NCBI RefSeq assembly: GCF_016863295.1
Contig: NZ_BOOP01000036.1
Location: forward strand, 62,001 to 126,000
Direction: 5' to 3'
DNA length: 64,000 nt
Source of the DNA: Planotetraspora phitsanulokensis
Lineage (GTDB): Bacteria; Actinomycetota; Actinomycetes; Streptosporangiales; Streptosporangiaceae
Shown here: piece after piece, positions 8,531-59,485 of the stretch
How positions within the stretch are numbered: position 1 is the stretch's first letter
How the letters are laid out: each line of letters opens with the position of its first letter
The notes under the pieces: model-generated
What the model was told of the DNA's origin: nothing
What the model saw: the letters and a program-made list of their open reading frames with translations, nothing else
The model's database searches: none
Position numbers and translations under genes: made by a program

Positions 8531-8689
8531 GCGTGCGGGAGCCGTACAGGGAAGTCGGCGACAGCTTTGGGGTTGATCATGCACGCCTTCGGCGAGGCGC
8601 GCCCTGACCTGGGCAGACGCCGGTCGTGATCAAGCACTGGTTCAAGAACGTCAACCCTGACCTGGGCAGACGCCTGGCGTGATCATGCA
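8531..8689. repeat. 53-bp repeat array 1 (three forward motif copies)
   Basis: Motif copies related to GTGATCATGCA begin at 8573 (TTGATCATGCA), 8626 (GTGATCAAGCA) and 8679 (exact), steps of 53 and 53 bp. The 20-mer CCCTGACCTGGGCAGACGCC also repeats at 8602 and 8655, again 53 bp apart, so whole units are repeated and not only the motif. The array occupies most of the 321-bp gap between the EamA gene and the ABC permease gene. Elsewhere in that gap I see nothing. Confidence 0.85.
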
Positions 8690-8700
8690 ACAGGGAGGGA

Positions 8701-9465
8701 CTACTCCCAGCGGAACGTGCGGGCGGCCAGTCCCAGGCCGGCCACGGTCCAGCAGAGCAGGACGATCACGGGCCCCGTGGGGAAGCCCGCGCCGTTCTCG
8801 AGCACCGACCGCATGCCCTGCGTGAGCGCCGTGATCGGGAGCAGCTCCAGGATGGGCTGGATGCCGCTGGGGAACTTGGTCAGTGGGAACACGACGCCGC
8901 CGAGCCCGAGCAGCACGAGGTAGACCAGGTTCGCCCCCGCCAGGGTGGCCTCGGCCCGGAGCGTCCCCGCCATGAGCAGGCCGAGCCCGCTGAACGCGGC
9001 CGTCCCGAGCAGGACCAGCAGGATCACCCACAGCGGGTTGCCGTGGGGCGACCAGCCGAGGGCCAGCGCGACGGCGCCGATCACCACGACCTGGATGATC
9101 TCGACCGCGATGACCGCGCAGGTCTTGGCGAGCAACAGCCCCGCCCTGGACAGGGGAGTGGCGCCGAGCCGCTTCAGCACGCCGTACCGCCGCTCGAACC
9201 CGGTCGCGATGGCCTGCCCGGTGAAAGCGGTGGACATCACGGCGAGCGCGAGGATCCCGGGGGTGACGAAGCCGATCCGCGACCCTTCGACGTCGATGAG
9301 CGCGGCCTGGGAGAAGCCCACCAGGAGCAGGATGGGGATGATCAGCGTGAGCAGCAGCTGCTCGCCGTTGCGGAGCATCGCCCGGGCCTCGGCGCCCGCT
9401 TGGGCGAGGACCATCCGGGGCAGCGGGGCCGCCCCGGGCCTGGGGCTGAAGTCGAGCGTCGTCAT
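8701..9465 (-). CDS. ABC-2 type permease
   Basis: A 254-residue membrane protein of the ABC-2 exporter class (DrrB/NodJ-like), with six hydrophobic segments and the typical GQAIATGFERRYGVLKRLGATPLSR loop after helix 2. It lies 127 bp downstream of the partner ATPase gene and probably forms an exporter with it. The ATG giving MTTLDFSPRPG is chosen; a GTG at 9519 is an alternative and neither is preceded by a strong ribosome site. This exporter pair beside sufR is a common actinobacterial neighbourhood; the substrate is unknown. Confidence 0.85.
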   Translation of the reverse strand: MTTLDFSPRPGAAPLPRMVLAQAGAEARAMLRNGEQLLLTLIIPILLLVGFSQAALIDVEGSRIGFVTPGILALAVMSTAFTGQAIATGFERRYGVLKRLGATPLSRAGLLLAKTCAVIAVEIIQVVVIGAVALALGWSPHGNPLWVILLVLLGTAAFSGLGLLMAGTLRAEATLAGANLVYLVLLGLGGVVFPLTKFPSGIQPILELLPITALTQGMRSVLENGAGFPTGPVIVLLCWTVAGLGLAARTFRWE

Positions 9466-9592
9466 CAGGTCGTTCCACCAGTCGTCAGATCGTCCCGCCG
9501 GCGAGCAGGCTCGGTGCACAGGTCGGGTCGCGTGCCTTCGCGGCGACCGCCCTCTCGCCGCCCTTCGGGCCGTTCCGCCCGCCCGGGGAACG

Positions 9593-10525
9593 TCATCGCA
9601 GCTCCCTGCCGGTGAGCTCGAGGAAGACGTCCTCCAGCGTGCGGCGCTCGATGCTCAGGTCCTCGGCGGTGACGCCCTCCGTGGCGCACCAGGCGGTGAC
9701 CGTCGCCAGCAGCTGGGGGCCGACCTGGCCCTCGATGATGTAGTGCCCCGCGGGCGACTCCTTGGCGGCGCTCCCGGGCGGCAGCGCGCTGAGCAGCTCG
9801 TCGAGGTTGAGCCCGGGCCGCGCGCGGAAGCGGAGCTGGCGTTCGGCGCCGGTCAGCGTCTCGGGGCTGCCCTCGGCCACCACCCGTCCGTGATCGATGA
9901 CCACCACGTGGTCGGAGAGCTTCTCCGCCTCGTCCATGTGATGGGTGGTCAGAACCACGGACACGCCCGCGTCGCGAAGCCCCGTCACCACGTCCCAGCA
10001 CGCGTGCCGTGCCTGCGGGTCGAGGCCTGCCGTCGGCTCGTCGAGGAAGACCAGCTCCGGCCGTCCGATGACGGCCGCGGCGAGCGAGAGCCGCTGCTGC
10101 TGCCCGCCGGACAGCCGTCTGTACGGCGTGCGCGCGTGGTCGGTGAGGCCCAGAAGGTCGAGGAGCGCCCCGGGGTCGAGAGGGTGGGCGTAGAAGCGGG
10201 ACACCACCCGGAGCCATTCGCCCGCCCGCGCGGCAGGGGGGACGCCTCCGGCCTGGGGCATCACGCCGAGGCGCGGCCGGAGCGAGGGATCGGCCGGGTC
10301 GAGCCCCAGCACCCGCACCGTCCCCGCGTCGAGGCGGCGGTATCCCTCGCAGATCTCGATGGTGGAGGTCTTGCCCGCGCCGTTGGGGCCCAGGATCGCC
10401 GTCACCTCGCCGCGTCCGCAGGCCATGGTCAGACCGTCCACGGCGATCGTCCGCCCGTACCGCTTGATCAGCCCACTGATCTCGACGGCTGCTCCGGCGC
10501 CCGAGGCGCTGCCACCCGCCCGCAC
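9593..10525 (-). CDS. ABC exporter ATP-binding protein (DrrA-like)
   Basis: A 310-residue ATPase with Walker A GPNGAGKTS, Q-loop MPQAGGVPP, signature LSGGQQQR, Walker B LVFLDEPTAGLD, an H-loop histidine in TTHHMDEAE, and the C-terminal extension usual for ABC-2 exporters. The GTG at 10525 follows GGGGAGG with a suitable gap. It pairs with the permease gene just downstream and diverges from sufR, so the 405-bp gap between them must serve both directions. Confidence 0.88.
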   Translation of the reverse strand: MRAGGSASGAGAAVEISGLIKRYGRTIAVDGLTMACGRGEVTAILGPNGAGKTSTIEICEGYRRLDAGTVRVLGLDPADPSLRPRLGVMPQAGGVPPAARAGEWLRVVSRFYAHPLDPGALLDLLGLTDHARTPYRRLSGGQQQRLSLAAAVIGRPELVFLDEPTAGLDPQARHACWDVVTGLRDAGVSVVLTTHHMDEAEKLSDHVVVIDHGRVVAEGSPETLTGAERQLRFRARPGLNLDELLSALPPGSAAKESPAGHYIIEGQVGPQLLATVTAWCATEGVTAEDLSIERRTLEDVFLELTGRELR

Positions 10526-10798
10526 GTCACGGGCCTCCCCTCAGCGAGATGAACCATCGGGGCCGGCCGGGAACCGGTCCGCCCGCGCTGGTCGTCGATT
10601 CGAACCGGTCTGCCGATTCCCAACGAGTCTAGGGAGCGAGACTGCCGGTCCGGCCGGGGGATGGCCGTCCCACGGCCGAAACACGGCCGAAGGCTGAGAC
10701 ACCGCCGGTGGACATCCGCCCCATTGTGATCGCGTACCGCCCCCCGATGATCTACGGACGGGCTGCCGGGCACGGCTTCCACGGTACGTCTTCGCAGG

Positions 10799-10817
10799 TT
10801 AGGTAAGCCTTACCTGC
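10799..10817. promoter_or_regulatory. IdeR/DtxR-type iron box upstream of sufR
   Basis: TTAGGTAAGCCTTACCTGC contains the perfect 7+1+7 palindrome AGGTAAG-C-CTTACCT and matches the 19-bp IdeR/DmdR consensus TTAGGTTAGGCTAACCTAA at about 14 of 19 positions with the same centre. It lies 114 bp upstream of the preferred sufR start. This suggests that iron-loaded IdeR can repress the suf operon. The rest of the 10526-10930 gap shows no other clear signal. Confidence 0.7.
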
Positions 10818-10930
10818 GTGAGAAATTGCATCCTTCTTGTCTTCCCCTTGGTTTGTCGTCCGGGAAGGAATTACGGCACACTGATGTTGTGAAATACGTG
10901 CCCGAGAGGATGAACACCGAGGAGACCGCT

Positions 10931-11755
10931 GTGCAGCGGCCTTCCGTGGTGCCCTCCGCGCGTACGCAGCCCCATACTTCCACCCCCGACTCGCCGGAGG
11001 CGAACGTGGGGGCGGGGAGCGCCGTCCACCTGGGTCCTGGTGTGTCCGCCCAGATCACGGCCGAGCGCGGCACGCGCGCCCGGGTCGCGAGGCTGATCCT
11101 GGAGCACGGCCCGGTGACCGCGGCGGCCCTGGGGGAGAGGCTCGGGCTCACCCCCGCGGCGGTCCGCCGCCACCTCGACGCGCTGCTCGCCGACGGCATG
11201 ATCGACTCCCGTACGGCACGGCCGCGCGGCCAGCGGGGCCGCGGCAGGCCCGCGAAGATGTTCGCGATCACCGACGCGGGACGCAGCGCCTTCGTGCACG
11301 CCTACGACGACCTCGCGGGCAGCGCCCTGCGCTTCCTGGCCGAGCGGCTGGGCGGCGAGGCGGTGTCGGAGTTCGCGCAGGCGCAGTTCTCCGGCCTGGT
11401 CAGCAGGCTGGAGCAGCTGATGCGGGAGGTGCCGGACGACCAGCGGGTACGCGTGCTCGCCGAGGCGCTGTCCGCCGAGGGCTACGCCGCGTCGTCCACG
11501 AAGACGGGGCAGGGCGGGGAGCAGCTCTGTCAGCACCACTGCCCGGTGGCGCACGTCGCCGCCGCGTTCCCCCAGTTGTGCGAGGCCGAGACGGAGGCCT
11601 TCGGGCAGCTGCTCGGCACACCGGTGCAGCGACTGGCCACCATCGCGAACGGCGACGGCGTCTGCACCACCCATGTGAGTTCCCACGCGCTGGCCGCACG
11701 GCAGGCGCCAACCCAGATAACGAGCACATCGACGAGCAAGGAGTCCGGCAGGTGA
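10931..11755 (+). CDS. sufR: SufR, iron-sulfur cluster-sensing ArsR/DeoR-like regulator
   Basis: Transcriptional regulator of the suf operon. The 274-residue product has a winged-helix domain ([20 protein letters not shown], then [14 protein letters not shown]) and a C-terminal cluster-binding region with C200-x3-C204-x12-C217 and a further C245. These are the candidate Fe-S ligands. GTG at 10931 is chosen because GAGGAG stands six bases before it; earlier in-frame starts at 10826, 10889 and 10910 lack a well-placed ribosome site. The stop overlaps the sufB start by GTGA, so the regulator and the assembly genes are translationally coupled and likely autoregulated. Confidence 0.9.
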
Positions 11756-18118: not shown

Positions 18119-19714
18119 GTGACCATGCTCGACCCCGGCCTGCCCGCGACCCTCGACACCGAGGAGGCGACGGCCGACTTCGCCCAGCTCGGGTTGCCCA
18201 AGCCGCTCGTGGCGGGGCTGGCCCGGCAGGGCATCACCGCGCCGTTCCCCATCCAGAGCGCGGCCATCCCCGACATCCTCGCGGGGCGCGACGTCCTCGG
18301 CCGCGGCCAGACCGGCTCCGGCAAGACGCTGGCCTTCGGCCTGCCCACCATGGCGCGGGTCGCCGGTGAGCGCGCCCTCCCGAGGCGTCCCCGCGCCGTC
18401 ATCCTCGTCCCCACCCGTGAGCTGGCCCTCCAGGTGGCCGACTCGCTCGAGCCGCTCGGCCGCGGTCTTTCGCTGCGGATCAAGACGGTGGTGGGCGGCA
18501 TGTCCATGGGCCGGCAGATCGAGGCGCTGCGCCGCGGCGTCGAGATCGTCGTCGCCACGCCCGGGCGGCTGACCGACCTCATGGAGCAGGGCGAGTGCTC
18601 CCTCGAGGACATCGAGGTCAGCGTCCTCGACGAGGCCGACCACATGTGCGACCTCGGTTTCTACCCCGTGGTGAGCTCGATCCTGGCCAAGACCCCCGCC
18701 CACGGCCAGAGGCTGCTGTTCTCCGCCACGCTGGACGGCGACGTCGACAAGCTCGTGCGGGCGTTCCTCACCGACCCGATCACCCACTCCCTCGACCCCG
18801 CGACCTCGTCGGTCGAGACCATGGAGCACCATCTGGTCCAGGTCCACCGGGACGACAAGGTCGACGTGACGGCAGAGATCGCCAGCCGGGAGGGCCGGAC
18901 GATCCTGTTCGTCCGGACCCAGCACGGCGTCGACCGGGTCGTGAAGCAGCTGGCCCGCGTCGGCGTCCGGGCCGGCGGCCTGCACGGCGGCAAGCGGCAG
19001 AACCAGCGGACCCGGATCCTGAGCGAGTTCCGCGAGGGCAACATCAAGGTCCTGGTCTGCACCGACGTGGCCGCCCGCGGCATCCACGTGGACGACGTCA
19101 GCCTCGTCCTCCACGTCGACCCGCCGGCCGACCACAAGAGCTACCTGCACCGCGGTGGCCGTACGGCCCGGGCGGGCGAGCGGGGCAGCGTCCTGACGCT
19201 GGTCATGCCGAACGAGCGCCGTTCGACCGAGCAGATGGCACGCCGGGCGGGCATCAATCCGTCCCGGCACCGGGTGACGCCCGGCGACCCCGTGCTGGCG
19301 GAGATCGCCGGCGCCCGCCGGCCCAGCGGCGAGTCGATCCCCGTGTGGGAGCCGGACGTGCGCAAGCCGCTGCGTCCCAAGGCCGACCACGCGGGCGGCG
19401 ACCGCCGTTCGCGCCGGTTCGGCGACCGCCGCGACCGGGACGGCCGTCCCGGCGAGGCCAGGCCGCCGCGGCGGCGGGACGAGTCGGCCGCCGGCAGCGT
19501 GAGCGAGATCCGCGGCCGGTTCCGCGACAGGCCGTCTGAGGGCCGCGGCGAGCGGCGTGACGACCGGCCCTTCGAGCGCCGTGACGACTCCCGCGGCGAC
19601 CGCGGCGCATCCCGTGGCGAGCACGGTGGGCCTCGCGGTGACCGTGGCGGGTCCCGCGGCGACCGCCGCCCCCCTCGCCGTGATCACGCAGGCGTTCGGG
19701 AAGCGGGTCGCTGA
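18119..19714 (+). CDS. DEAD-box RNA helicase with RGD/RRD-rich tail
   Basis: ATP-dependent RNA helicase of 531 residues. It has GQTGSGKT (63-70), PTRELALQ (98-105), DEAD (171-174), SAT (202-204), and motif VI HRGGRTARAG. From about residue 400 the tail becomes an Arg/Asp/Gly-rich low-complexity region with RRDD, SRGDRG and RGDRRPP repeats, typical of RNA-binding tails. GTG at 18119 is chosen for the GAAAGG nine bases upstream. The last dozen codons coincide with a 53-bp repeat unit whose motif GTGATCACGCA lies at 19680-19690, so the C-terminus RDHAGVREAGR may be repeat-derived. Confidence 0.93.
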   Translation: MTMLDPGLPATLDTEEATADFAQLGLPKPLVAGLARQGITAPFPIQSAAIPDILAGRDVLGRGQTGSGKTLAFGLPTMARVAGERALPRRPRAVILVPTRELALQVADSLEPLGRGLSLRIKTVVGGMSMGRQIEALRRGVEIVVATPGRLTDLMEQGECSLEDIEVSVLDEADHMCDLGFYPVVSSILAKTPAHGQRLLFSATLDGDVDKLVRAFLTDPITHSLDPATSSVETMEHHLVQVHRDDKVDVTAEIASREGRTILFVRTQHGVDRVVKQLARVGVRAGGLHGGKRQNQRTRILSEFREGNIKVLVCTDVAARGIHVDDVSLVLHVDPPADHKSYLHRGGRTARAGERGSVLTLVMPNERRSTEQMARRAGINPSRHRVTPGDPVLAEIAGARRPSGESIPVWEPDVRKPLRPKADHAGGDRRSRRFGDRRDRDGRPGEARPPRRRDESAAGSVSEIRGRFRDRPSEGRGERRDDRPFERRDDSRGDRGASRGEHGGPRGDRGGSRGDRRPPRRDHAGVREAGR

Positions 19715-19872
19715 GCTGCCCCGATCCTTGTGGTGATCATGCACAGGTTCTTGTTCTAAGGCCCTGATCTGCGGTTTTGCCAAACGTGATCATGCAGGTG
19801 AAGTAGGCCTGCATGATCACGTTTTGCATTTCCGCTGCATAGAGGGTGATCCTCGAATCCGCGCATGATCAC
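19680..19872. repeat. 53-bp repeat array 2, head-to-head, overlapping helicase 3' end
   Basis: Forward motif copies begin at 19680 (GTGATCACGCA, inside the helicase), 19733 and 19786, at 53-bp steps. Reverse copies begin at 19810 (TGCATGATCAC) and 19862 (CGCATGATCAC). The forward copies at 19733 and 19786 mirror the reverse copies at 19862 and 19810 about one centre near 19803. Confidence 0.88.
19782..19824. terminator. 17-bp inverted repeat at the centre of array 2
   Basis: AAACGTGATCATGCAGG, nine-base loop, CCTGCATGATCACGTTT: a perfect 17-bp stem with A and T runs at its outer ends. It is placed between the helicase stop and hisE. It could terminate transcription from either side; this role is inferred from shape only. 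Confidence 0.6.
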
Positions 19873-19997
19873 GAACTGGGTTGTTCCTTGGTATGGTCCG
19901 CGCGGCGGGTGTGCGACGCGCCCCGGGCGGGACTGACCTGGATGCGCCCCTGCGGCGGATAGTCTGGACGGGCACGCCCGACGATCCGAGAGAGATC

Positions 19998-21267: not shown

Positions 21268-22800
21268 TCAGCGGGGTCGTGACCCGGCCGGGCTCCGGCG
21301 AGCCACGTCGCCGGGCGACGCCGACCGCAGGAGCCGCAGGATCGCCGCGCCCGCCAGGTACGTGACCAGGGCGGGTGTCGGCAACCCCAACACGGCCGGA
21401 GCGGTGCTGGGCAGCAGGCTGTTGTCGAGGAGGGCTACGACGACACCGGCGAACCCCGCCAGGGCGACCCCGAGACGCGCCACGGGGTGGGCTGCGAGAG
21501 CGAGTCCGAGACGCGCCACCGGGCGAGCCACCAGGGCGAGCCCGAGGCGCGTCGTCGGGGGTGCCGCCGGGGCACGTTGTCCGGGACACCGGGCTGAGGG
21601 AGCGACCGTGCCCGGCGCGTCCGCGACGGCCCGGCGTGCGCCGCGGACCTCGATCCGCCCGAAGACGGCGACCAGGGGCGCCAGAGCGAGACCGCACAGC
21701 AGCAGCAAAGGGATGCGCCAGGCCAACCAACCTGCTGAGCCGGCCGCGTACACGGGAAGGACGCCGGCGAGGTGGAGGGCGAAGACCACCAGGACCGCGG
21801 CGGTGACGTGCCAGAGGAAGATCGTCAGGATCACGGTGTTGACCGCGACGACCACCGTCCACGGCCGTGTGCCGCGCAGCCACCGGGCGGCGCGGTCGCG
21901 CAGCAGGAGCACCGCCCCGATCTGGGCGGACGCGACGGCGAGCAGGGCCAGGCTCGGGGGTGACATGTTGTGCAGCCGCTCGCCCGGCACGTTGAGCATG
22001 CTGACCGGATACGGGCCCGCGAGGGTGAACAGCAGCAGCGCGCCGACCCCGCCGAGCAGCAGCGGCGCCGCCACCCGGGGGCGGGCGGGCAGCAGCCCGT
22101 CTCGCCAGGCGAATCCCATTTGGTAGACGGCCAGCCAACCGAACAGGTAGTTGCCCAGACTCAAGGACGGCGCGCCGAGGAGCCGGGCGACGTCACCGAG
22201 GGCGACGAGGCAGACCAGCGCCGGCGGGACCCACAGGCCGTACCGGAGGTGCAGGGCGTACATCAAGGGCGTCAGCACGACCAGGACCAGGTAGACCACG
22301 AGAAACCACAGCGGTATCGAGGCGAACCACACCACCAGGCGAACCCGGGCTGGATCGGCGCCGAGCAGGTGGGCGGCGAACGCGCCCCCGGCCATGACCA
22401 GGATCAGGGCCGTGGTCGGCCGGAGCAGCCGCCCGCTCCGGTTGACCAGCCACCCCGCCGCGTCTCCGCCCCGGTCGCGGTGCCTGGTCAGCGAGACCGC
22501 GTTGGCGTATCCGCCGACGAAGCAGAAGACCGGCACCACCTGGAAGAGCCAGGTGAGCGGATGAGCCCACGGCAGGTCGGGCAGTGCCGACCGGCCGACC
22601 AGTTCGCTGTGTTCGTCGTACCCGACCACCGTCACCAGCCAGTGACCCAGGACCACGGCCAGGATCGACAAGCCGCGGAGCAGGTCCGCGAACCGCTCCC
22701 GTGACGGCGGCGTCTGCTCGGCGAGCCGGCGAAGCCCTCGCAACGCGGCGCCCATGTCGTCCATCTCCTCCAGGGCACCCTCGGGTCGATGGGGTGACAT
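21268..22800 (-). CDS. Acyltransferase-3 family membrane protein
   Basis: A 510-residue integral membrane acyltransferase. It has the family N-terminal motif FADLLRGLSILAVVLGHWLV, about ten helices, SIPLWFLVVYLVLVVL and a polar C-terminal part. The C-terminus contains an internal duplication of about 16 residues based on RLGLALxARPVA that is also visible in the DNA near 21478-21550. Members acylate sugars, peptidoglycan or secondary metabolites; the substrate is unknown. The start at 22800 is one of three close candidates (also MDDMGAAL and MGAALRG). Confidence 0.8.
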   Translation of the reverse strand: MSPHRPEGALEEMDDMGAALRGLRRLAEQTPPSRERFADLLRGLSILAVVLGHWLVTVVGYDEHSELVGRSALPDLPWAHPLTWLFQVVPVFCFVGGYANAVSLTRHRDRGGDAAGWLVNRSGRLLRPTTALILVMAGGAFAAHLLGADPARVRLVVWFASIPLWFLVVYLVLVVLTPLMYALHLRYGLWVPPALVCLVALGDVARLLGAPSLSLGNYLFGWLAVYQMGFAWRDGLLPARPRVAAPLLLGGVGALLLFTLAGPYPVSMLNVPGERLHNMSPPSLALLAVASAQIGAVLLLRDRAARWLRGTRPWTVVVAVNTVILTIFLWHVTAAVLVVFALHLAGVLPVYAAGSAGWLAWRIPLLLLCGLALAPLVAVFGRIEVRGARRAVADAPGTVAPSARCPGQRAPAAPPTTRLGLALVARPVARLGLALAAHPVARLGVALAGFAGVVVALLDNSLLPSTAPAVLGLPTPALVTYLAGAAILRLLRSASPGDVARRSPAGSRPR

Positions 22801-28788: not shown

Positions 28789-30258
28789 TCAGCGGCCCGT
28801 CTGCGCGTCGGCGACGTGGCGGATCAGGTCGCCGACCCTGACGATGCCCATGCACCTGCCTACCTCGTCCACGACCACGAGGTCGTCGTAGACCCGGGCG
28901 TTGTCACGACCCGCCACCTGCATGGCCGCTATCGCGGGTGTGGTCTTCGGCACCACCTTGGCCGCGTCGGCCAGACGGTGGGCCGGCTTCCTGGCGTGCA
29001 GGGCGTGGCCGTACGCGCCGGCCATGAACAGCAGGAAGCGGCTGCGGTCGATGCTGCCCTGCGGCCGCTGGTACTCGTCGACGAGGATGATGCTCGTGAT
29101 GGAGGGCTCCGAGCTGAGCGCGGCCATCACGTCCTCGGCCGTGGACTCCATGGGAAGGGTCACGGCGGGGAGCAGGAACTCCTGGACCCGCGGGCCCAGC
29201 ATCGCGGCGGACGGCGTCGTCTCCGGGAGCGGCAGCGGCACGTGGACGCGGCTGTGGCCGAGGGACGGCCGCCAGTCGGAGGGGGCGAGCAGCGGGCCCT
29301 GCGCCAGCCGGATGCCCCAGCCGCGCACCGCGCCCAGCTGGGTCTCGTCGCGTACGCCCGGCGCCAGGACGTGCGCCCCGATGCCCTTGGCGAACGTCAC
29401 CAGGGCCTCGGCCAGTCCGCTTCGGCGGGGGTCGCGCGGCCCGCGCTCGACCACGTCCGGCGCGATGAGGATCACGTACGGCGAGGCGTCCGCGACCAGT
29501 TCGAGCGGGACGTAGGAGGAGCCGAGACCGCCGAACGCGATCAGGTAGCCGACGGCCCGCAGGCCTTCGATCCCGGACAGCAGGTAGCGCCGGTCGCCGG
29601 GGGAGACGTCTCCCTCGATGACCAGGATCACCTCACGGCTGCGGCGGTTGGTCACGCGCAGGGCCTCGTGGAGCGTCGCCAGCCCCGCGGACCCGCCGAG
29701 CACGGCGGACACGGGGATGGGCAGCAGGAGGGGCAGGAGGGCCTCCTCCTGCGCGGCGGCGTGCACGCCGCTGACTGTCGCGGCGACGCCGTCGACGGGA
29801 CCGCCGATTGTGCTCGCGATCACCTCGACCGCGATGACGCCGCCGGTGTCGAGGTCGATGATCGGAATGAAGTGCGGTCGGCCCGGGGTGCCGGGGATGT
29901 CGAATCCCGGCATCTCGAACCCGTGAGTGGTCGCCCCGGAGGGACGGCCGGCGGGCGGGGTGTCCCCGCTGGGCGCGGCCGCGCCGTACGGGCGGGACGC
30001 CGGGTCCGACGGCGAAGGGCCGGTGCCGTAGGGACGGGCCCCGGGGTTCGCCGTGGGAGGAGCCGCGCCGTACGGGCGGGACGCCGGGTCGGGTGCGGAA
30101 GGGGCCGCGCCGTAGGGACGGCTGGGCGCCGACGCGTCCACACCGGGCGTGGGCGCACGGTGGCTTCCGGACGTCGAGGCGTCTGGAGCGGTCTGGGCCT
30201 GTGGCATGGCAGGCGGCGCCGCCGAAGTTGAGGGGACCGACACGTATTGGATTGTCAT
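28789..30258 (-). CDS. Degenerate EAL domain plus CBS pair protein
   Basis: A 489-residue protein in three parts. Residues 1-115 are a disordered linker with about four tandem SRPYGAAP/ARPYGTGP units. Residues about 125-320 follow the EAL phosphodiesterase fold, but the signature EAL is EVI in IDLDTGGVIAVEVIAS, the DDFG motif is AFGG, and the late motif reads AQGPLLAPS. Catalysis of cyclic di-GMP is therefore unlikely. The C-terminus holds a CBS pair (PMESTAEDVMAALSSEPSI onward and KVVPKTTPAIAAMQ onward) that may bind adenine nucleotides. It is most likely a ligand-sensing or scaffold protein. It ends 61 bp from the response regulator, in the convergent direction. Confidence 0.8.
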   Translation of the reverse strand: MTIQYVSVPSTSAAPPAMPQAQTAPDASTSGSHRAPTPGVDASAPSRPYGAAPSAPDPASRPYGAAPPTANPGARPYGTGPSPSDPASRPYGAAAPSGDTPPAGRPSGATTHGFEMPGFDIPGTPGRPHFIPIIDLDTGGVIAVEVIASTIGGPVDGVAATVSGVHAAAQEEALLPLLLPIPVSAVLGGSAGLATLHEALRVTNRRSREVILVIEGDVSPGDRRYLLSGIEGLRAVGYLIAFGGLGSSYVPLELVADASPYVILIAPDVVERGPRDPRRSGLAEALVTFAKGIGAHVLAPGVRDETQLGAVRGWGIRLAQGPLLAPSDWRPSLGHSRVHVPLPLPETTPSAAMLGPRVQEFLLPAVTLPMESTAEDVMAALSSEPSITSIILVDEYQRPQGSIDRSRFLLFMAGAYGHALHARKPAHRLADAAKVVPKTTPAIAAMQVAGRDNARVYDDLVVVDEVGRCMGIVRVGDLIRHVADAQTGR

Positions 30259-45250: not shown

Positions 45251-45705
45251 CTCATGGGCCAAAAGTGACAAACCACCAGACCGTCCAGTCCCGTGATCAT
45301 GCACAGAGTCGCAAATCGATCCCTGACCAGCGCCTTCTCTTGCCGTGATCATGCACAGGTGCGGCGAAAGGGGGGCTGGCCTGCGGATATGTGATTCGTG
45401 ATCATGCACTGGGGTCGTAGACGTCGGCCGGATGGCGCGCTGGCCGTTCCCTGACCTCCTCAAACGACGTACGGCCGGGCATCCTGGTGGCCGTACCTGA
45501 TTACGCCACGTAATCAGGCTGGTCGGCGACCGGATGTGCGAAGTCGTGCATGATCACGAAACGCGAAGACGCAGGCCGTCGCCGGTCTCGCCGACCCTAT
45601 GCATGATCACGTACGGTGTTTGGGCTGCTCATCGGGCATGACCCGGAATATGTGCATGATCACGGCTGAAGGTCGGGCGTCGGGGCGGGTTTTGCTCATT
45701 GGGGC
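45251..45705. repeat. 53-bp repeat array 3, mirror-symmetric (three plus three)
   Basis: Forward GTGATCATGCA copies begin at 45293, 45345 and 45398; reverse TGCATGATCAC copies begin at 45547, 45600 and 45653. Steps are 52, 53, then 53 and 53 bp. Each forward copy mirrors a reverse copy about 45477.5 to within half a base. Units also share a second box such as CGCTGGTC. The array fills most of the 634-bp gap between the POT gene and the secreted repeat protein gene; the rest is the AT-rich POT promoter side. Confidence 0.92.
45496..45518. terminator. 10-bp hairpin inside array 3
   Basis: CCTGATTACG, loop CCA, CGTAATCAGG: a perfect stem near but not at the array centre. No U tract follows. It could be a terminator, a protein site or part of a structured transcript. 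Confidence 0.5.
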
Positions 45706-45754: not shown

Positions 45755-47038
45755 ATGATGAGACGTTTGATTGCAACGCCTATCCTCGGAATGGCGGTTA
45801 CGTTGGCAGCCGGCTGGGCCCCCGCGACGGCCGCCGACGAACTGGCCATCAGGTCCATCACCGTGAAGCCGGGCACCCCCGTCGTGGGGCCCACGGGTTC
45901 GGTCAAGGTCGTGGTCGAGGTGATGGCGCGGGGTGCGACAGCCGTCTCCGTTCGCCTCGAGCCCGGCCGTACCGGACCGGTGACCCCGAACGACCCCGAG
46001 ACTCCACCGTCACCTGGAGTGCAGCAGCCGCCCGTCAATCCCAGTACTCCGGGCAACGTGGTGCCGGGGGCCCCCGCCCAGCCGGCGCAGGCTCCGGCTC
46101 AGACCCCCGCGCACGTACCCGCTCAGGCGCCCGCAGCCTCGCCTCAGGCCGTGGTTCCGGCCCGGCCGCAGAGTCAGGCACACGCCCCGTCCCAGGTTCC
46201 CGCGCAGGTGAAGACGCCTGCGCCGGCCCAGGCGTCCGGTCAGGTGCCTACGCCGGTGAAGGCATCCGCTCCTCCACAGGCTCCGGCCAAGCCTCCGGCT
46301 CAGGCGCAGACTCCGTCCCAGGTTCCCCCGCAGGTGAAGCCTGCCGTTCCCGCTCAGGTCCCGGCGAAGGTGCCTGCGAAGGTGCCTGCGCAGGTTCCGG
46401 GTCAGGCCTCGGCTCAGGTTCCGGCACAGGTGAAGACACCTGCGCCGGCGCAGGCACCGGCCAAGATCCCAGCGCCAACGCAGGCTGCGGGTGCCCCGAC
46501 GGCGGCACCGCCGGCTGCCGCGTTGAACGCCCACGCCGCTCCGCACCGAGCCATGCGGGCCACGGCCGCGCAAGTCCCCGGCACGAGTCGTGACCGGTCC
46601 GAATGGGAGACCTGGCTCTTCCTGCCGGAGAGGCCGCTGTCGAGGTGGTATCCCAGCGGCCCGTGGACGGTCACGGCCACGGCTCGGAACGCGGAGGGGA
46701 ACGTCGTCACTTACCGGACGATCTTCTTTCTCAAGCGGCAGACCGCGCTCGAAGGGGTGAACGTCGTCCGCAGCGACAACCAGGTCCGCATCACCGGGAC
46801 CCTGCTGCGCGTCGACCCGCTCGGCCGGGTGGACTACCGTCCGTTCGAGGGGCAGGAGATCGCGCTGGCCTTCCGGCCCTCCGGTTCGGGGACGTGGCGC
46901 ACGATGGGCACGGCCGTCACCGACAAGAACGGCTGGTTCAGCAGCCGGCATCGCGGAATGGGTGACGGCGTCTGGCGTGCGGAATACGCCGGTACCGGTC
47001 ACTACGCAGGTGAGATCAGTGCCGACAAGCACCCATAA
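45755..47038 (+). CDS. Secreted Pro/Ala/Gln/Val-repeat protein
   Basis: A 427-residue exported protein. The signal peptide (MMRRLIATPILGMAVTLAAG, then cleavage near ATAADE) is followed by a small beta-rich region. Residues about 85-265 are low-complexity built from PAQV, PAKV and QAPA units, and a C-terminal domain of about 150 residues holds WETWLFLPERPLSRWYP and ends GEISADKHP. The middle may be an extended wall-spanning stalk. It does not match a family I know. It lies upstream of the RamR-like regulator, hinting at a link with the morphogenetic lanthipeptide locus. Confidence 0.8.
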   Translation: MMRRLIATPILGMAVTLAAGWAPATAADELAIRSITVKPGTPVVGPTGSVKVVVEVMARGATAVSVRLEPGRTGPVTPNDPETPPSPGVQQPPVNPSTPGNVVPGAPAQPAQAPAQTPAHVPAQAPAASPQAVVPARPQSQAHAPSQVPAQVKTPAPAQASGQVPTPVKASAPPQAPAKPPAQAQTPSQVPPQVKPAVPAQVPAKVPAKVPAQVPGQASAQVPAQVKTPAPAQAPAKIPAPTQAAGAPTAAPPAAALNAHAAPHRAMRATAAQVPGTSRDRSEWETWLFLPERPLSRWYPSGPWTVTATARNAEGNVVTYRTIFFLKRQTALEGVNVVRSDNQVRITGTLLRVDPLGRVDYRPFEGQEIALAFRPSGSGTWRTMGTAVTDKNGWFSSRHRGMGDGVWRAEYAGTGHYAGEISADKHP

Positions 47039-47131: not shown

Positions 47132-47312
47132 ATTCTTCTGTTGTTCGCGCAATTTCCGGACCCGTACGGCTTTCGCCGATAAGACTCGCGAATAAAAGGT
47201 AATAGGTGGGGTAGAGAGGGCAACCGAAAACGATGTCCGGCGTCAATAGTGAGTGAGCTCGGGCCGTCACGGTCCCGGGCGTCGGGGACAAGGAAGCGTG
47301 AGGGAACCGCTG

Positions 47313-47969
47313 GTGATTCGTCTGCTGCTCGCCGAGGACATGCATCTGATCCGGAAGGCGCTGATCGCGCTTCTCTCCTGTGAGGACGACCTCGAGGTGG
47401 TCGCCGAGACCGCGAGAGGCGAGGAGATCGTCAGGCTCGCCTGTCTACGCCGGCCGGACGTCGCCCTGCTCGACATCGGGATGCCCGGGGTCGACGGCCT
47501 GACAGCGGCCTCGGAACTGCACCGGCGATTACCCACTTGCAAGACGGTGATCCTCACCGGGCTCGGCACCCCGCTCGCCCTGCGCCGGTCGCTGGACGCC
47601 AACGTACGGGGCTTCATCGTCAAGGACGCAGAACCCGGCCATCTCGTCGACTGCATCCGCCGTGTGTACGCCGGAGAGCGTGTGGTCGACCCCGAACTCG
47701 CGGCGGCCGCGCTCGACACGGACGGCAACCCGCTGACGGCTCGCGAGCTGGACATCCTGGAGACCGCCGCCTCCGGAGCAACGGTCGGCGAAATAGCGGA
47801 GCGGCTTTCGCTTTCACATGGAACGGTCCGGAACTACCTGTCGCGAATTCTCGCCAAGCTCGGCGCCCGATCGCGCGTGGAGGCGATTCAGATCGCCTCG
47901 GAATCGGGGTGGTTGTGGCCGGCGAACGGGCGTGAGATCGGCATCCTCCGTCAGCGCCCCAGACGCTGA
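47313..47969 (+). CDS. RamR-like LuxR-family response regulator
   Basis: A 218-residue response regulator. Receiver features are AED at residues 7-9, the phospho-acceptor D54 in ALLDIGMPG and lysine in FIVKDAEPG. The LuxR helix-turn-helix is LTARELDILETAASGATVG followed by LSLSHGTVRNYLSRILAK. GTG at 47313 is chosen for GAGGGA about seven bases upstream. It points towards the class III lanthipeptide operon and ends 124 bp from it. In Streptomyces RamR activates ramCSAB, so it is the likely activator here, though its orientation is convergent rather than co-directional. Confidence 0.88.
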   Translation: MIRLLLAEDMHLIRKALIALLSCEDDLEVVAETARGEEIVRLACLRRPDVALLDIGMPGVDGLTAASELHRRLPTCKTVILTGLGTPLALRRSLDANVRGFIVKDAEPGHLVDCIRRVYAGERVVDPELAAAALDTDGNPLTARELDILETAASGATVGEIAERLSLSHGTVRNYLSRILAKLGARSRVEAIQIASESGWLWPANGREIGILRQRPRR

Positions 47970-48032: not shown

Positions 48033-48096
48033 CGCATGATCACGCAAGCGAAATGGGCAGCTGAGGGGGCATGATCACGAGCCTGTGCATGATCAC
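48033..48096. repeat. 53-bp repeat array 4 at the end of the lanthipeptide operon
   Basis: Reverse-type motifs begin at 48033 (CGCATGATCAC) and 48086 (TGCATGATCAC), 53 bp apart, with an off-register GGCATGATCAC at 48068. The last copy overlaps the stop codon of the exporter gene ending at 48093, so this unit reaches into coding sequence. Confidence 0.8.
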
Positions 48097-49787
48097 GCCA
48101 AGGACGGTGGGCGGTGGTCCAGCCACAGGCCGACGAGGTCGGCGTACAGCGGTGAGGCGCCCACCAGGTCCTCGTGCGTCCCGGCCAGGACCCGGGTGCC
48201 GTCCATGACCAGGACGCGGCGGGCGCGCAGCGCGGAGGAGATCCGATGGGCGACGACGATCAGCGTTCCGCCCCGCGCGGCGAACGCGGCCTCGGCCCTG
48301 GCCTCCGCGGCGGGGTCCAGATGGCAGGTCGCCTCGTCGAGCACGACCAGCCGCGCGGGCGACAGATAGGTCCTGGCCAGCGCGATCAACTGCCGTTCGC
48401 CGGCCGACAGCTCGGCCGGGTCGATCTCGGTGTGATAGCCGTCGAACCGCTGGACCAGGTCGGCCAGGCCGAACGCGGCCACCGCCTCGTCGACGGCCTC
48501 GGCCGGCGCCTCCGGGGCGAGGTAGGTGAGGTTGTCGGCGAGGCTCCCGTGGAAGACGTAGGCCTCCTGCGGGATCAGCGCGCGGACGGCCTCGTGGGCC
48601 TCGCTCGCGGGGACGCCGCCGATCAGCACCGAGCCCTCAGCGGGGCGGAGCACCCCGGCGACGAGCCCGGCGAGGGTCGACTTGCCGATCCCGCTCGGGC
48701 CGACCACGGCCAGGTGGTCGCCTTCCGGCACGACGAGATCCAGGCCGTCGATCACCGGCTCCGCCTCGGGCCCGTACGCGAAGGAGACCCCCGTCAGTTC
48801 CAGCCCCGTGCTCTCAGGCCGCCTCCGCGGCTCGGACGACTCCGGCGGAACCTGGTCGCCGAGGATCCGCTCCAGCGTGACGGCCAGTCGTACGCCGCTG
48901 ACGCCGAGCCCCTGGACGAGCCCGGACAGCGCGGGCGTGAGCGACTGCATGACGTACGTGAGGGCCCCGAGGGCCACGCCCGCCGTCAAGCCCCGGTCGA
49001 GCAGCCACGGCGTGCCCGCGAGCAGCAGGAGGATCGGCAGCCAGCCGCCCACGGCGAGCGACAACGTCCGGGTGGCCGTGACCCGGGCCAGCGCGCGGGC
49101 GGCCCGGGCCTGGTCGCCGATCTGGCGGCCCACGCCGGCTGCGACGCGGACCTCCGCCCCGCAGGCCGCGACGTCGCGCAGGCCGCCCGCCATGACGGCG
49201 ACCGCGGAGGCCGTCCGCTCGTCGGCCACGATGAAGTCCCGCTGCCGCCGGGCCAGCGCGGGCAGGGACGCGAGGAACAGGCCCAGCCCCAGCAACACGG
49301 GGGGCAACACGAGCGGCACCACCGCCGGGGCGAGCGTCATCATGCCGATCGCGACGCTGACCAGCGTGAACACGAACGACCTCACCACCGTGATGATCGC
49401 CCCGAGTGCGTCCCTGGCGAGCTCGACCTGATGGTTCATCCGGGCAACCGCCGAGGCGTCGCCATCACGTTCCGCCCGCAACGCGCCGGAGACCACGCGG
49501 GTCAGCAGGTCGTCGCGGAAGGGCTCGACCACCGCGGCGATGTTCAGCAGGATCTGGCGGGCCGCGACGGCCGCCAGCAACCAGGCGGCGGCCAGCAGGG
49601 CCAGCCAGGCGAGCCCGGCCCCGGGACGCCCGGCCGCGAACCCGTCGTCGACGGCCCGCGCCACCGCGTGACCCCCGGCGAACGCGGGCACCACCTCGGC
49701 CAGCGACCAGGCGCCCAGCCGGACGATCCGGTACGGCTCCCGCGACAACGAGCGGCGAAGGAAGAGCCACACGAGCCCGCCCCTCAT
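48093..49787 (-). CDS. Lanthipeptide ABC half-exporter B (RamB-like)
   Basis: A 564-residue permease-ATPase fusion. It has six membrane helices in about residues 20-300, Walker A GPSGIGKST, signature LSAGERQLIALAR and LVVLDEATCHLD with the catalytic glutamate intact. The ATG overlaps the upstream exporter stop as ATGA. It is expected to form a heterodimer with the preceding half-exporter to move the mature lanthipeptide out. A longer upstream reading exists but is out-of-frame noise within the neighbouring gene. Confidence 0.9.
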   Translation of the reverse strand: MRGGLVWLFLRRSLSREPYRIVRLGAWSLAEVVPAFAGGHAVARAVDDGFAAGRPGAGLAWLALLAAAWLLAAVAARQILLNIAAVVEPFRDDLLTRVVSGALRAERDGDASAVARMNHQVELARDALGAIITVVRSFVFTLVSVAIGMMTLAPAVVPLVLPPVLLGLGLFLASLPALARRQRDFIVADERTASAVAVMAGGLRDVAACGAEVRVAAGVGRQIGDQARAARALARVTATRTLSLAVGGWLPILLLLAGTPWLLDRGLTAGVALGALTYVMQSLTPALSGLVQGLGVSGVRLAVTLERILGDQVPPESSEPRRRPESTGLELTGVSFAYGPEAEPVIDGLDLVVPEGDHLAVVGPSGIGKSTLAGLVAGVLRPAEGSVLIGGVPASEAHEAVRALIPQEAYVFHGSLADNLTYLAPEAPAEAVDEAVAAFGLADLVQRFDGYHTEIDPAELSAGERQLIALARTYLSPARLVVLDEATCHLDPAAEARAEAAFAARGGTLIVVAHRISSALRARRVLVMDGTRVLAGTHEDLVGASPLYADLVGLWLDHRPPSLA

Positions 49788-54325: not shown

Positions 54326-54356
54326 AACATGTCCCCTTAGGCCGATCGCTTCAAAG

Positions 54357-54368
54357 AATTCCGGAATT
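54357..54368. promoter_or_regulatory. AATTCCGGAATT palindrome upstream of lanKC
   Basis: A perfect 12-bp palindrome 32 bp before the lanKC start in an AT-rich stretch. A TTGACT hexamer lies further upstream on the same strand. It is a candidate regulator site or promoter element for the operon; binding by the RamR-like regulator is unproven. Confidence 0.4.
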
Positions 54369-54565
54369 AAGGGGTTGGGCCAAGTTACGTGAGTCAACAG
54401 CTGCATAGGTGTCCGTCATGCGGCCACCCGTGATTCCGGTCATGGGGGATCGCATGAAGAACCCAGGGGCGAGCCGGATGCGATGCGTGTGATCCCCGGA
54501 GAATTCACAGGTGACGGGCCGAGGCGGCCTGATTTCCAGCGAGGGGCGAGGTCCGCCCGGGCCGG

Positions 54566-55273: not shown

Positions 55274-55491
55274 GTGAAGATCCTCCAGTCATCCTCGCCA
55301 GAGGACCGGCCTCGCTTTCGAATGCACGGCTCGATCATTGCATGAAAGTCAATAAATATGGCGACTTAATGCTGATCGAATTGCGTTCTATTAGTGGCGT
55401 GCCCGATGGGTGCCGGAATCGTCGCGATGCGCGTGATCCGGTTGACGAGGATAGAGAATTCCGGCCGCGGTAGGGCGGTGAATCTGGAGTC

Positions 55492-57077: not shown

Positions 57078-57091
57078 GTCGGGACCTCCGG

Positions 57092-58207
57092 TCACCAGCG
57101 CAGGAGGACGAGCTCGGAGCAGAAGCCGGGGCCCATCGCGATCAGCAGCCCCGGGGTGCCGGGCGGCGGCGGGCGAAGCGCGAGGGTGTCCCTGAGGACG
57201 TGCAGGACCGACGAGGAGGACAGGTTCCCGATCGCTTCCAGCGACCGCCAGGTCAGGTCGAGCGCGCCGCCCGGCAGTTCGAGCGCCTCCGCCACGGCCT
57301 CGAGGACCTTCGGCCCGCCCGGATGGCACACCCACGCCGTCATGTCGTGCGCGGCCAGTCCGTGGCCGCCGAGGAAGGCGGTCACGTCGTCGGCGAGGTA
57401 GGTTCGCACGACGTCGGGCACACCGGCGTCCAGCACGACCTTGAAGCCGGAGTCGCGGACGTCCCAGCCCATCACCCGCTGGGACGCCGGGTAGAGCCGG
57501 CTGCGGGTGGCCACGACCGTGGGGCCCTGCGTGGTTGGGTTCTGTGCGGTGGGGTTCTGGGCGGTTGGGCTCTGCGTGGCTGGGCTCTGGGCGGTGGGTC
57601 GCTCGTCGCCGACGGCGACGACCGCGGCGGCGCCGTCCCCGAACAGCGCGCTCGCCACCAGGTTGGCGACCGAGCCGTCCTCCCGCTGGAGCGTCAGGGA
57701 GCACAGCTCCACCGAGAGCAGGACGGCCACGTGGCCGGGCCACCCGCGCAGGTAGTCGTGCAGGCGGGCGATCCCCGCCGCGCCGGCGACGCAGCCGAGG
57801 CCGAAGACGGGGATCCGCTTCACGTCCGGACGCAGGCCGAGGCGGCCCGCGAGCCGCGCGTCGATGGAGGGGGCCGCGATGCCGGTCACCGACGTGCACA
57901 TGATCATGTCGACGTCGTCCGGGGTGAGACCTGCCGCGTCGAGCGCGCCCGCGACCGCCCGGGCCCCGAGTTCGACGGCCGCCTCGATGAACAGGTCGTT
58001 GGCCATGCCGAACCCGTCGAGCTTGCCGTACTGGTCGAGTGGGAGCACGAGATTGCGGTGCGAGACGCGGGCGCTGCCGTGGAGCCGGTCGAGCAGTCTC
58101 CGGTCGCCGCCTTCGGGGAGGCAGACCTTGGCGAAGACGTCGGTGATCTCCGCCTGCGGATACCGGTTCGGGGGGAGGACTCCGTGGACGGCGGCGATTC
58201 GCGTCAT
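57092..58207 (-). CDS. Type III polyketide synthase
   Basis: Chalcone synthase-like iterative enzyme of 371 residues. The triad is seen as C139 ([11 protein letters not shown]), H295 ([10 protein letters not shown]) and N328 (AIGNLSSSS). It starts [18 protein letters not shown]. Residues about 204-230 are an inserted run of five five-residue units such as PTAQN and PATQS encoded by a 15-bp tandem repeat, in a loop that is variable in the family. With ICMT-like and flavoprotein genes following, alkylresorcinol/phenolic lipid synthesis is the most likely output. Confidence 0.93.
57521..57595 (-). repeat. 15-bp minisatellite within the type III PKS gene
   Basis: Five 15-bp units (for example TGGGTTCTGTGCGGT and TGGGCTCTGGGCGGT) keep the reading frame and encode PTAQN/PATQS-like pentapeptides. 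Unit number could vary between strains without breaking the gene. Confidence 0.85.
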
Positions 58208-58256
58208 ATCCAATTCCCCCGGGCTGGCGAAAGATTCGGCATATCTCTTTTGCCCG

Positions 58257-58362
58257 CCAAGAGCATCCCCATGCCGATCATCCCCGCCCCTTCCCCACGT
58301 GATCATGCACGCTTTCGGTCGCGTACGGCCCGACCAGCGCATATTCGGTTCGTGATCATGCG
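58257..58362. repeat. 53-bp repeat array 5 between UbiA and type III PKS genes
   Basis: Forward motifs begin at 58299 (GTGATCATGCA) and 58352 (GTGATCATGCG), 53 bp apart. Reverse-complemented, the 58310-58362 unit matches the 59326-59378 unit of array 6 at most positions, including CGAACC, GCGCTGGTCGG and CCGTACG. This shows homology across the whole unit. Confidence 0.88.
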
Positions 58363-58375
58363 GCGACGTCTGCAG

Positions 58376-59227
58376 TCAGACGCCCACGCCGATCCCGGAC
58401 GCGAGGAGGAGGCCGACGTCGACGGCCGCGCACGCGATGGCCGCGGCGAATGGGATCTTGGCCGACAGGCCGCCGAGAGCCGTACCCGCGAGGCCGAAGG
58501 CGGACACCGCGGCCAGGCCACCCCAGACGACGGCACTAGGCGGCCCGGGGGGTGCGAACACGAGCAGTGCGGACGCGCCGAGCAGGGGGAGCGGGATCAA
58601 CGCGCGAACGCGGGACGGCCCCAGCCGCTGCGGCCATCCGCGGACTCCGACGGCGATGTCCTGTCCGATGTCCGGCAGGACGTTCGCGAGATGCGCCCCG
58701 AGCCCGAGGGCCGCCGCCGCGACGACCGCCCACCATGCCGGCCACGGCCGTCCGGGCAGCCCGGTCGCCACGAACACCGGGAGGCTGCCGAATCCCACGA
58801 CGTACGGCACCCAGGAGAGCAGGGTCGCCTTCAGCCGGAGGTTGTACGCCCACGCTCCCGCGACGGCGACAAGGTGGACGGCGCCGGCCAGCAGCCCGGA
58901 GGCGAATGAGACCGGTACACAGATGGCGAACGCGGAGATCGCGGACACGTACACCGTCTTCACGCCGACCTGCCCGGCGACGATGGGTTTCTCCGCACGA
59001 GCGGCGGCGGTGTCGCGGGGCGCGTCGACGGCGTCGTTGCACCAGCCCACTGAGAGTTGGCCGGTGAGAATCGCGGCCGCCACGAGGACGCTGCCTGCGG
59101 TGTCATGACCGGCGGCCACCGCCAATGCGGTGACCAGGGCGGTGACGGCCACGGTGGGCCCGGGATGACAGGCCTTCGCGAGCCCGCTCAGCGCCCCCGT
59201 CAGGGAGCCGCGCCCCATCGCCACCAC
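58376..59227 (-). CDS. UbiA-family prenyltransferase
   Basis: A 283-residue membrane prenyltransferase with about eight helices. Both Asp-rich motifs are present: NDAVDAPRDTAAARAEKPI (first, near residues 64-80) and NVLPDIGQDIAVGVRGWPQRLG (second). It is upstream of and co-directional with the type III PKS operon, separated by array 5, so it may act on the PKS product to give a prenylated phenol. It could instead belong to an unrelated quinone pathway. Confidence 0.87.
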   Translation of the reverse strand: MVAMGRGSLTGALSGLAKACHPGPTVAVTALVTALAVAAGHDTAGSVLVAAAILTGQLSVGWCNDAVDAPRDTAAARAEKPIVAGQVGVKTVYVSAISAFAICVPVSFASGLLAGAVHLVAVAGAWAYNLRLKATLLSWVPYVVGFGSLPVFVATGLPGRPWPAWWAVVAAAALGLGAHLANVLPDIGQDIAVGVRGWPQRLGPSRVRALIPLPLLGASALLVFAPPGPPSAVVWGGLAAVSAFGLAGTALGGLSAKIPFAAAIACAAVDVGLLLASGIGVGV

Positions 59228-59272
59228 CAGAGCCTAACTCCGGCCTGGATCATCATCAGGCCAGGCGGAATC

Positions 59273-59485
59273 TGCATGATCACGCGGCATGTCCGCCCTG
59301 GTCGCACGGCACGGCGACGAAGTCGTGCATGATCACGAACCGGGTTTGCGCTGGTCGGACCGTACGTGACCGAGAGTGTGCATGATCACGCGGGGAGGGT
59401 GGGCGGGTCGGCGGGCAGTTCCGCGAATCCGTGCACGATCACGGCGAGGGCGGTGGCACCGTTGATTTGGCTGACGATCGTGACA
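59273..59485. repeat. 53-bp repeat array 6 (four reverse motif copies)
   Basis: TGCATGATCAC copies begin at 59273, 59326 and 59379, and TGCACGATCAC at 59432, exactly 53 bp apart each time. Units share a second box around GGTCG at unit positions 29-33. The array fills the 361-bp gap between divergent UbiA and ABC ATPase genes, leaving about 100 bp before the ATPase start for its promoter. Confidence 0.93.

What the first reader, a model, noticed from the sequence alone, without database searches (positions are those of the whole stretch)
8531..59485. A dispersed 53-bp repeat family with strict spacing in six intergenic arrays
The motif TGCATGATCACG or its reverse occurs about 20 times. Within arrays copies start 53 bp apart nearly without exception: 8573/8626/8679, 19680/19733/19786, 45547/45600/45653, 58299/58352 and 59273/59326/59379/59432. 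Units are homologous along their length and carry a second box near CGCTGGTCRG at unit positions 25-34 and often CCGTACG at about 35-41. Fifty-three base pairs is close to five DNA helical turns, so every motif would face the same side of the helix. This fits a cooperative DNA-binding protein (architectural or segregation-type) or a structured RNA. I know no described family with these features; novelty is inferred.
Basis: partly seen in the sequence, partly recalled or inferred. Interest (0 to 1): 0.88.

Follow-up and report, generated by a model that had tools for sequence, protein, structure and literature searches.

The report
Phased GCATGATCACG arrays at gene ends
Some soil actinobacteria carry many small intergenic arrays in which one short DNA word is kept almost letter-perfect, mostly exactly 53 bases apart, while the DNA between the copies drifts freely, which points to landing sites for a DNA-binding protein that has not been identified.

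Summary
The own genome (genus Planotetraspora) holds 242 exact copies of TGCATGATCACG against 0 of the reversed control; four congeners hold 612-940. In the stretches read from the five species, 226 of 287 same-strand neighbours within 130 bp lie exactly 53 bp apart. Orthologous arrays keep the word (96.5% identity) while spacers drift (72.3%) and take few indels, so word and spacing look selected locus by locus. Arrays have arms pointing outward, sit mostly just behind stop codons, and end in a G-rich tract. RNA structure, a coded mini-peptide and REP/RAYT membership were tested and not supported. Related arrays, often in other dialects, occur patchily in the family (53-bp pitch in g65, g69, g80; mixed 53/41 in g72) and, with other pitches, in three other families of the class. 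Best reading: binding-site ladders for an unidentified, lineage-variable DNA-binding protein with an architectural or insulating role at gene ends. A mobile-element origin is the main rival. The binder was not found; the own genome appears to be losing boxes. The paper rows we saw held no description.

The parts
8572..8689 (-). single arm, 3 boxes at 53/53, 11 bp from the stop of 8701-9465(-) (ABC-2 permease)
   Evidence: orthologous arms in G002, G003, G004
19679..19796 (-). left arm, 3 boxes at 53/53, overlapping the 3' end of 18125-19714(+) (DEAD-box helicase)
19810..19873 (+). right arm, 2 boxes 52 bp apart; centre of 13 bp between the arms
45547..45664 (+). right arm, 3 boxes at 53/53
48033..48097 (+). 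arm with boxes at 35 and 18 (sum 53), between convergent genes 47298-47969(+) and 48093-49772(-), the stop of the latter lying in the last box
   Evidence: the 35/18 pattern is also in G003 and G004
58298..58362 (-). left arm, 2 boxes 53 bp apart, 13 bp from the stop of 58376-59227(-) (UbiA prenyltransferase family)
59273..59443 (+). right arm, 4 boxes at 53/53/53; one unit is 83% identical outside the motif to the inverted unit at 58361
59318..59378 (+). example unit: CGAA extension (59318-59325), 12-mer (59326-59337), box B (GCGCTGGTCGG, 59348-59358)
   Evidence: consensus of 106 units; letters rechecked

Best explanation
Each array is a ladder of binding sites for a sequence-specific DNA-binding protein that is not yet identified. 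SHOWN by sequence: a box A of about 20 bp (CGAAcctgTGCATGATCACG), a weaker box B (GCGCAGGTCAG) inside each unit, a mostly exact 53-bp pitch, arms that point outward from a centre, an innermost box that mostly lacks the CGAA part, a G-rich tract outside the outermost box, frequent siting just behind stop codons, and locus-by-locus constraint on word and spacing. INFERRED: a dimer seeds on the inverted innermost boxes, further copies line up outward every five turns by contacting A and B and each other (hence an exact length and not just a face), and the nucleoprotein block at gene ends acts as an insulator, roadblock or chromosome-organising node. Where the binder is lost or changed, the arrays of the genome erode or change dialect together.
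For: Pairwise alignments of 6 orthologous regions in 4 species (ordered pairs, so columns recur; columns near gaps left out): box core 96.5% identical (2524 columns), spacers 72.3% (6418), other columns 81.9% (25426, with some gene ends); gap openings 26 in 8431 spacer bp against 252 in 18642 bp outside, 41 unit comparisons without an aligned partner set aside. Neighbouring units are no more alike than random units (51% against 49%), so the pitch is not just fresh duplication. Array positions are stable: at conserved gene pairs no array is found in G000 only; of 19 exact core boxes in these six window regions none is absent in the three relatives. The 53-bp pitch returns with other flank or core dialects in G120 (59 units), G242 (33) and G105 (21). 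The CoxS-like/amidohydrolase gap carries an array in three genera, each in its own dialect. sdaA locus, read by eye: 5 of 5 array-bearing g69 genomes have it, 9 of the 9 readable others show no trace, G122 is cut there. Outward order in G000: 71 minus-then-plus pairs within 330 bp, 0 plus-then-minus (a looser filter over six genomes gives 47 against 10 neighbours within 130 bp).
Against: No binder was found, and no experiment shows binding. In G028 a palindrome of about 62 bp is nearly identical at many loci, which looks like recent copying. Related families hold the same word without a strict pitch, so the ladder geometry is not needed everywhere. Locus sharing between genera is modest (Fisher p 0.12-1 per genus pair; Planotetraspora against G105 0 shared, 3 unshared, though searches show shared gaps), and spacer homology at shared loci is inconclusive. 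The own genome seems to be losing boxes (of 28, 33 and 38 exact core boxes in G002, G003 and G004, 6, 8 and 14 are absent here), so the function cannot be essential in every species.
Confidence: 0.5

Rival explanations
1. Non-autonomous mobile elements (MITE/REPIN-like) spread by a transposase that recognises the outer box; spacing reflects copying of a 53-bp unit, and siting behind stop codons reflects where insertions are harmless.
For: Dyad-like arms with a distinct outermost box, like terminal plus subterminal repeats; near-identical palindromes across loci in G028; local inverted copies of units; patchy distribution; in G242 the CoxS-like gene runs through the C-rich tract into the box and stops there.
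Against: No gain or loss of loci between G002, G003 and G004 (15 shared, 0 unshared pairwise comparisons, loci recurring); a dead element would decay evenly, but box and spacer differ sharply; no Y1 transposase in 9 of the 11 array-bearing genomes searched; with one G120 array as query no plasmid or phage match listed touches the array; the exact 22-mer end box is in no viral contig and the spaced pair in two, with other repeats. Other transposase families were not tested.
Confidence: 0.28
2. Protein-dependent transcription terminators or insulators: the DNA-bound ladder stops RNA polymerase leaving the gene; the C-rich tract behind the stop codon could load Rho.
For: Distance to 3' gene ends median 15 bp (45 of 65 within 40 bp) against 74 bp to 5' ends (13 of 45 within 40 bp) in G000 (in G001 the difference is small: 57 against 73, 9 and 9 ends); a G-rich tract outside the outermost box, that is C-rich in the sense of a gene ending there, in 5 of 5 groups.
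Against: The outermost box points outward as often at gene starts (29 of 45) as at gene ends (41 of 65) in G000, so there is no gene-sense polarity; an array sits between two close tandem genes in three genera; at L410 a G+C-rich inverted repeat already lies between an L28-like gene (from recall) and the array (sequence; not folded).
Confidence: 0.15
3. Structured RNA.
For: RNAalifold energy is below all 60 column shuffles on both strands, but by pairing the self-complementary TGATCA of two copies of the box.
Against: Candidate B-A stem: observed pairing equals that of independent columns in 258 units; mean single-sequence z only -0.6 and -1.0 (40 units, mononucleotide shuffles); no Rfam match in the window.
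Confidence: 0.03
4. MIRU-like translational coupling: 53 = 16 codons + TGA + 2, so each unit could run from the ATG of one box to the TGA of the next.
For: Frame open in 92% of 205 Planotetraspora units against 71% after shuffling; stop codon of a neighbouring gene often inside a box.
Against: Two other frames are about as open (94%, 87%); open in only 49% in G120; differences at codon positions 1, 2, 3 are equal (0.227, 0.224, 0.220; p=0.95; 59 ortholog pairs) against 0.053, 0.032, 0.160 in genes.
Confidence: 0.02

Closest known systems
REP/BIME/REPIN elements with RAYT (PMC3733652: start of abstract and passages; PMC2817692, PMC3116915: search listing)
   Same: many short intergenic repeats downstream of genes, between convergent and tandem genes, in arrays with opposite orientations
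   Different: the 53-bp units are not hairpins, carry no GTAG/CGTC tag, direct repeats at an exact pitch, and no Y1 transposase in 9 of 11 array-bearing genomes searched
Mycobacterial interspersed repetitive units (PMC12548453, PMC2734929: passages; 53-bp unit length recalled)
   Same: tandem units of similar length in intergenic sites touching start or stop codons, in actinobacteria
   Different: no coding signal; outward arms; spacers diverged; sequence homology not tested
DNA uptake sequences (recalled)
   Same: one 10-12-mer at high copy, lineage dialects, inverted pairs behind genes
   Different: fixed pitch and second box; competence in these hosts not tested
Iteron or parS-type binding-site arrays (recalled)
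   Same: direct repeats plus inverted pair of one box, helical pitch
   Different: many dispersed chromosomal loci, pitch 53 bp

Membership tests
REP/BIME with RAYT | REP-associated Y1 transposase (PF01797) in the genome | tested here: not met
   E 1e-5: absent in G000, G002, G003, G004, G105, G028, G120, G074, G130 (9 of 11 array-bearing); present in G001 and G078, and in array-poor G110, G112, G119, G123; absent in array-poor G013
REP/BIME with RAYT | 20-40 nt palindromic (hairpin) unit | tested here: not met
   for the 53-bp units; outward palindromic pairs are the usual form in the G028 and g56 loci read
REP/BIME with RAYT | intergenic, downstream of genes | tested here: met
   149 of 181 sites intergenic against 13.5% of bases; looser filter 200 of 312
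MIRU | unit carries an ORF coupled to the neighbouring gene | tested here: not met
MIRU | sequence homology to mycobacterial MIRU | not tested
   no MIRU sequence was fetched
Known RNA family (Rfam 15) | covariance-model match | tested here: not met
   whole window, 0 at gathering score
CRISPR | unrelated unique spacers between repeats | tested here: not met
   spacers share box B at a fixed place; cas genes not searched
Mobile element (MITE) | polymorphic insertion with target duplication | tested here: inconclusive
   no gain or loss between G002, G003, G004; occupied and empty sdaA sites, compared by eye, show no clear duplication
Crp-type site GTG-N6-CAC (recalled) | outer GTG and CAC kept in all lineages | tested here: not met
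   G001 and G028 read CTGCATGATCAC; the G242 and G120 consensus lacks it too
DNA uptake sequence | drives uptake of DNA | not testable with these tools
   needs an experiment

The most novel reading that the evidence does not exclude
A class-wide, undescribed nucleoprotein system of actinobacteria: one recognition word (GCATGATCACG) is amplified to tens or hundreds of copies in outward-pointing arrays behind genes in unrelated families, while each lineage has its own ruler (53 bp, 22 bp, or loose) and flank dialect, the arrays of a genome changing or vanishing together with one co-evolving binder.
Probability: 0.33. Interest if true: 0.87.

Novelty: new variant of a known kind. Interest (0 to 1): 0.72.

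Why it matters
It offers a natural experiment on how many binding sites co-evolve with one protein: genomes with dense, thinning and absent arrays exist within one genus, dialects differ between genera at the same loci, and the constraint on spacing can be read directly. If the binder is found it could add a chromosome-organising or gene-insulating protein to a group of bacteria in which little is known about either (last clause: own knowledge).

Tried and rejected
Structured RNA. Coded mini-peptide / MIRU-like coupling. RAYT transposase. B box as an inverted half-site of box A: seen in the Planotetraspora consensus only, not in the G242 and G120 consensus. Ancestral regulon: of 20 copies read in array-poor genomes, 14 lie inside predicted genes (aconitase- and SulP-like sequences recur, named from recall) and 6 were scored intergenic, of which L310 overlaps two gene ends and L307 matches the coding copy at L314. 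Candidate binders among genes beside arrays: the 14 clusters printed hold ABC ATPases, syntenic neighbours, common enzymes and response regulators, none convincing. Genes bracketed by arms look ordinary (only UbiA was searched). Viral contigs: two stretches with the spaced pair; L316 has a 54-bp and L317 a short tandem repeat of other sequence. Plasmids and phages: one G120 array with flanks as query; the listed matches lie before the array part. Spacer homology of shared loci between genera: inconclusive (one search had a faulty motif filter and was replaced). L262 looked like coding sequence and was thought a false positive, but other G242 loci hold true arrays. Paper searches on the sequence, REP, MIRU, Planotetraspora and Streptosporangiaceae: rows seen were 15 of 20, 30 of 74 (18), 0 (20), 12 of 45 (22), 12 of 39 (57), 1 (58), 3 (70), 10 of 666 (71); none of these titles or abstract starts describes such arrays; the rows not listed were not seen.
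Full report
OBSERVATION. The 12-mer occurs 14 times exactly and 34 times with up to two mismatches in the window, where 5.06 are expected. In the whole own genome there are 242 exact copies and none of the reversed control. The 53-bp peak is general: 79 of 104 same-strand neighbours within 130 bp in the 862 kb of the own genome examined, and 226 of 287 over five Planotetraspora species. Most of these stretches were chosen because they hold motifs or are syntenic to the window, so they speak for spacing, not density.

ORGANISM. The own genome is of the same genus by the kinship column; I cannot name its species.

ANATOMY. From 106 exact units the consensus is TGCATGATCACGaacGGgGTcgGCGCAGGTCAGgGGGCcTgtCccCGAACCTG. 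Box A is CGAACCTG plus the 12-mer, box B GCGCAGGTCAG. In two-armed arrays the left arm is minus and the right arm plus (71 against 0 pairs within 330 bp; with a looser filter over six genomes 47 against 10 neighbours). Many arrays have one arm only. Arms of two or more boxes have up to 6. The innermost box mostly lacks the CGAA part (its GA in 34% against 98 and 99% for middle and outermost boxes in Planotetraspora; 13, 47 and 92% in G120). In G120, 28 of 39 arms have exactly three boxes, the outermost mostly reads TGCGACAAACTACAAGATCACG (TACAA in 30 of 39), and 9 of its 10 centres of at most 30 bp are 2 bp long, which makes the core a near or full palindrome. Outside the outermost box lies a G-rich tract in 5 of 5 groups (G 0.48-0.71 over 16 bp, against 0.34 in spacers).

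SITING. 149 of 181 sites in the own-genome stretches are intergenic while 13.5% of bases are (own gene finder); with a looser filter 200 of 312. Arrays with two or more boxes: 17 of 55 between convergent genes against 75 of 483 intergenic regions of 40 bp or more; 7 of 55 between divergent genes against 133 of 483. The outer end lies a median 15 bp from a 3' gene end in G000, often with the stop codon TGA inside the box; in G001 (9 ends) the median is 57 bp.

SELECTION. In pairwise alignments of six orthologous regions (G000, G002, G003, G004) the box core is 96.5% identical, spacers 72.3%, other columns 81.9%; spacers take 26 gap openings in 8431 bp, surroundings 252 in 18642 bp; 41 unit comparisons without partner were set aside. 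Units were chosen at 53 bp in one species of each pair, which can bias the gap count by at most about two-fold in my estimate. Four-fold sites of neighbouring genes are 80-86% identical between G000 and the other three. Neighbouring units are no more alike than random ones, although some near-copies exist, also inverted. So the spacing is kept over evolution, not only produced by fresh duplication.

EROSION AT HOME. The 19 exact core boxes of the six regions are present in G002, G003 and G004, 18, 18 and 16 of them intact; the reverse is not true: of their 28, 33 and 38 exact boxes, 6, 8 and 14 are absent here. Together with 242 copies against 612-940 this suggests relaxed selection in the own genome.

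SPREAD. An exact 53-bp pair of the core occurs in 9 of 341 family genomes and the same 9 of 345 in the order. A looser word, TRCAWGATCACG, gives 21-953 copies in 17 of 40 genomes tested and 2-13 in the other 23. A sequence profile finds units in 23 of 50 family genomes at E 0.01, 13 of them with only 1-3 matches. Within genus g69 five of fifteen carry arrays, G121 only few. At sdaA, read by eye, the five have an array, nine have none and one contig ends too early; G105, of another genus, has one, G130 has none. A tree of this locus does not unite the carriers, with poor resolution. G028 and g56 instead mostly have outward pairs 38-59 bp apart, g56 also inward pairs 29 bp apart; g72 mixes steps of 53 and 41.

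BEYOND THE FAMILY. In 148 class genomes the profile hits 6 at E 1e-4, four of them outside the family, in three families (G421 and G369 share one). A search of these four (G421, G371, G474, G369) gives 91, 77, 15 and 14 matches at E 0.05, mostly weak. The 19 loci read show the same word with other flanks: 22-bp tandem arrays in G369 (one of 18 copies), loose spacing in G421, G371 and G474, again mostly outward (9 minus-plus, 1 plus-minus). Six spaced 8-kb windows of G371, chosen without regard to the motif, hold 6 exact core copies in 2 windows, all intergenic, and no control.

LOCUS SHARING BETWEEN GENERA. The gap between a CoxS-like gene (Pfam Fer2_2) and an amidohydrolase-like gene (from recall) carries an array in Planotetraspora, g80 and g69, each in its own dialect, and each CoxS-like gene ends inside the first box. 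A gene ending GGGDW (TPM-like, from recall; no Pfam match) has one behind it in G105, G242 and G120. In the window, gaps w06/w07 and w41/w42 also carry arrays in G105, the first in the opposite orientation and the second with an extra gene. Overall counts are small: Fisher p 0.12-1 per genus pair, and spacer homology is inconclusive.

WHAT IT IS NOT. RNA, mini-ORF and RAYT tests failed as told in the rivals and membership sections. The few copies in array-poor genomes are mostly coding (14 of 20 read).

MECHANISM. A near-invariant word, a kept length with drifting spacers, a second weaker box, outward arms and distinct end boxes are what one expects of a protein that seeds at the centre and builds outward by protein contacts. 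This is inference: no binder is known. Loss or change of one trans-acting factor would explain why arrays are many or nearly absent in a genome, and why dialects change together.

KNOWN OR NEW. Of 74 papers that hold one of four strings of the word, 30 were listed and one opened, where it is one predicted ArgR site in Streptomyces (PMC5839063, one passage). REP elements (PMC3733652, start of abstract and passages) share siting but not structure or, in most of our genomes, the enzyme. MIRUs (PMC12548453 and PMC2734929, passages) share siting and size, but the former describes them as carrying a coupled ORF, which is not seen here.

Noticed in passing
window 58376-59227: The UbiA-family gene is bracketed by a left and a right arm and lies inverted relative to G001, G105, G115 and G120 (minus in G000, G002, G003, G004): arrays mark both ends of an inverted single gene.
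   Followed up: partly
L416 1128-1511 (G369): 18 tandem copies of a 22-bp unit that contains the same core word, iteron-like.
   Followed up: no
L422 (G371): An array lies between two IS110-family transposase genes (PF01548, PF02371).
   Followed up: no
G120, L113-L115 and L388-L407: Outermost, middle and innermost boxes tend to be different words within one arm.
   Followed up: partly
window 46081-46485: Repeats of about 48 bp, low complexity, in a possible coding region upstream of 46553-47038.
   Followed up: no
window 29959-30121 and 21458-21565: 42-bp and 36-bp repeats inside predicted genes.
   Followed up: no
L424 1529-1559 (G369): Two copies of the word inside a predicted gene that looks like a dihydrolipoyl acyltransferase (name from recall).
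   Followed up: no
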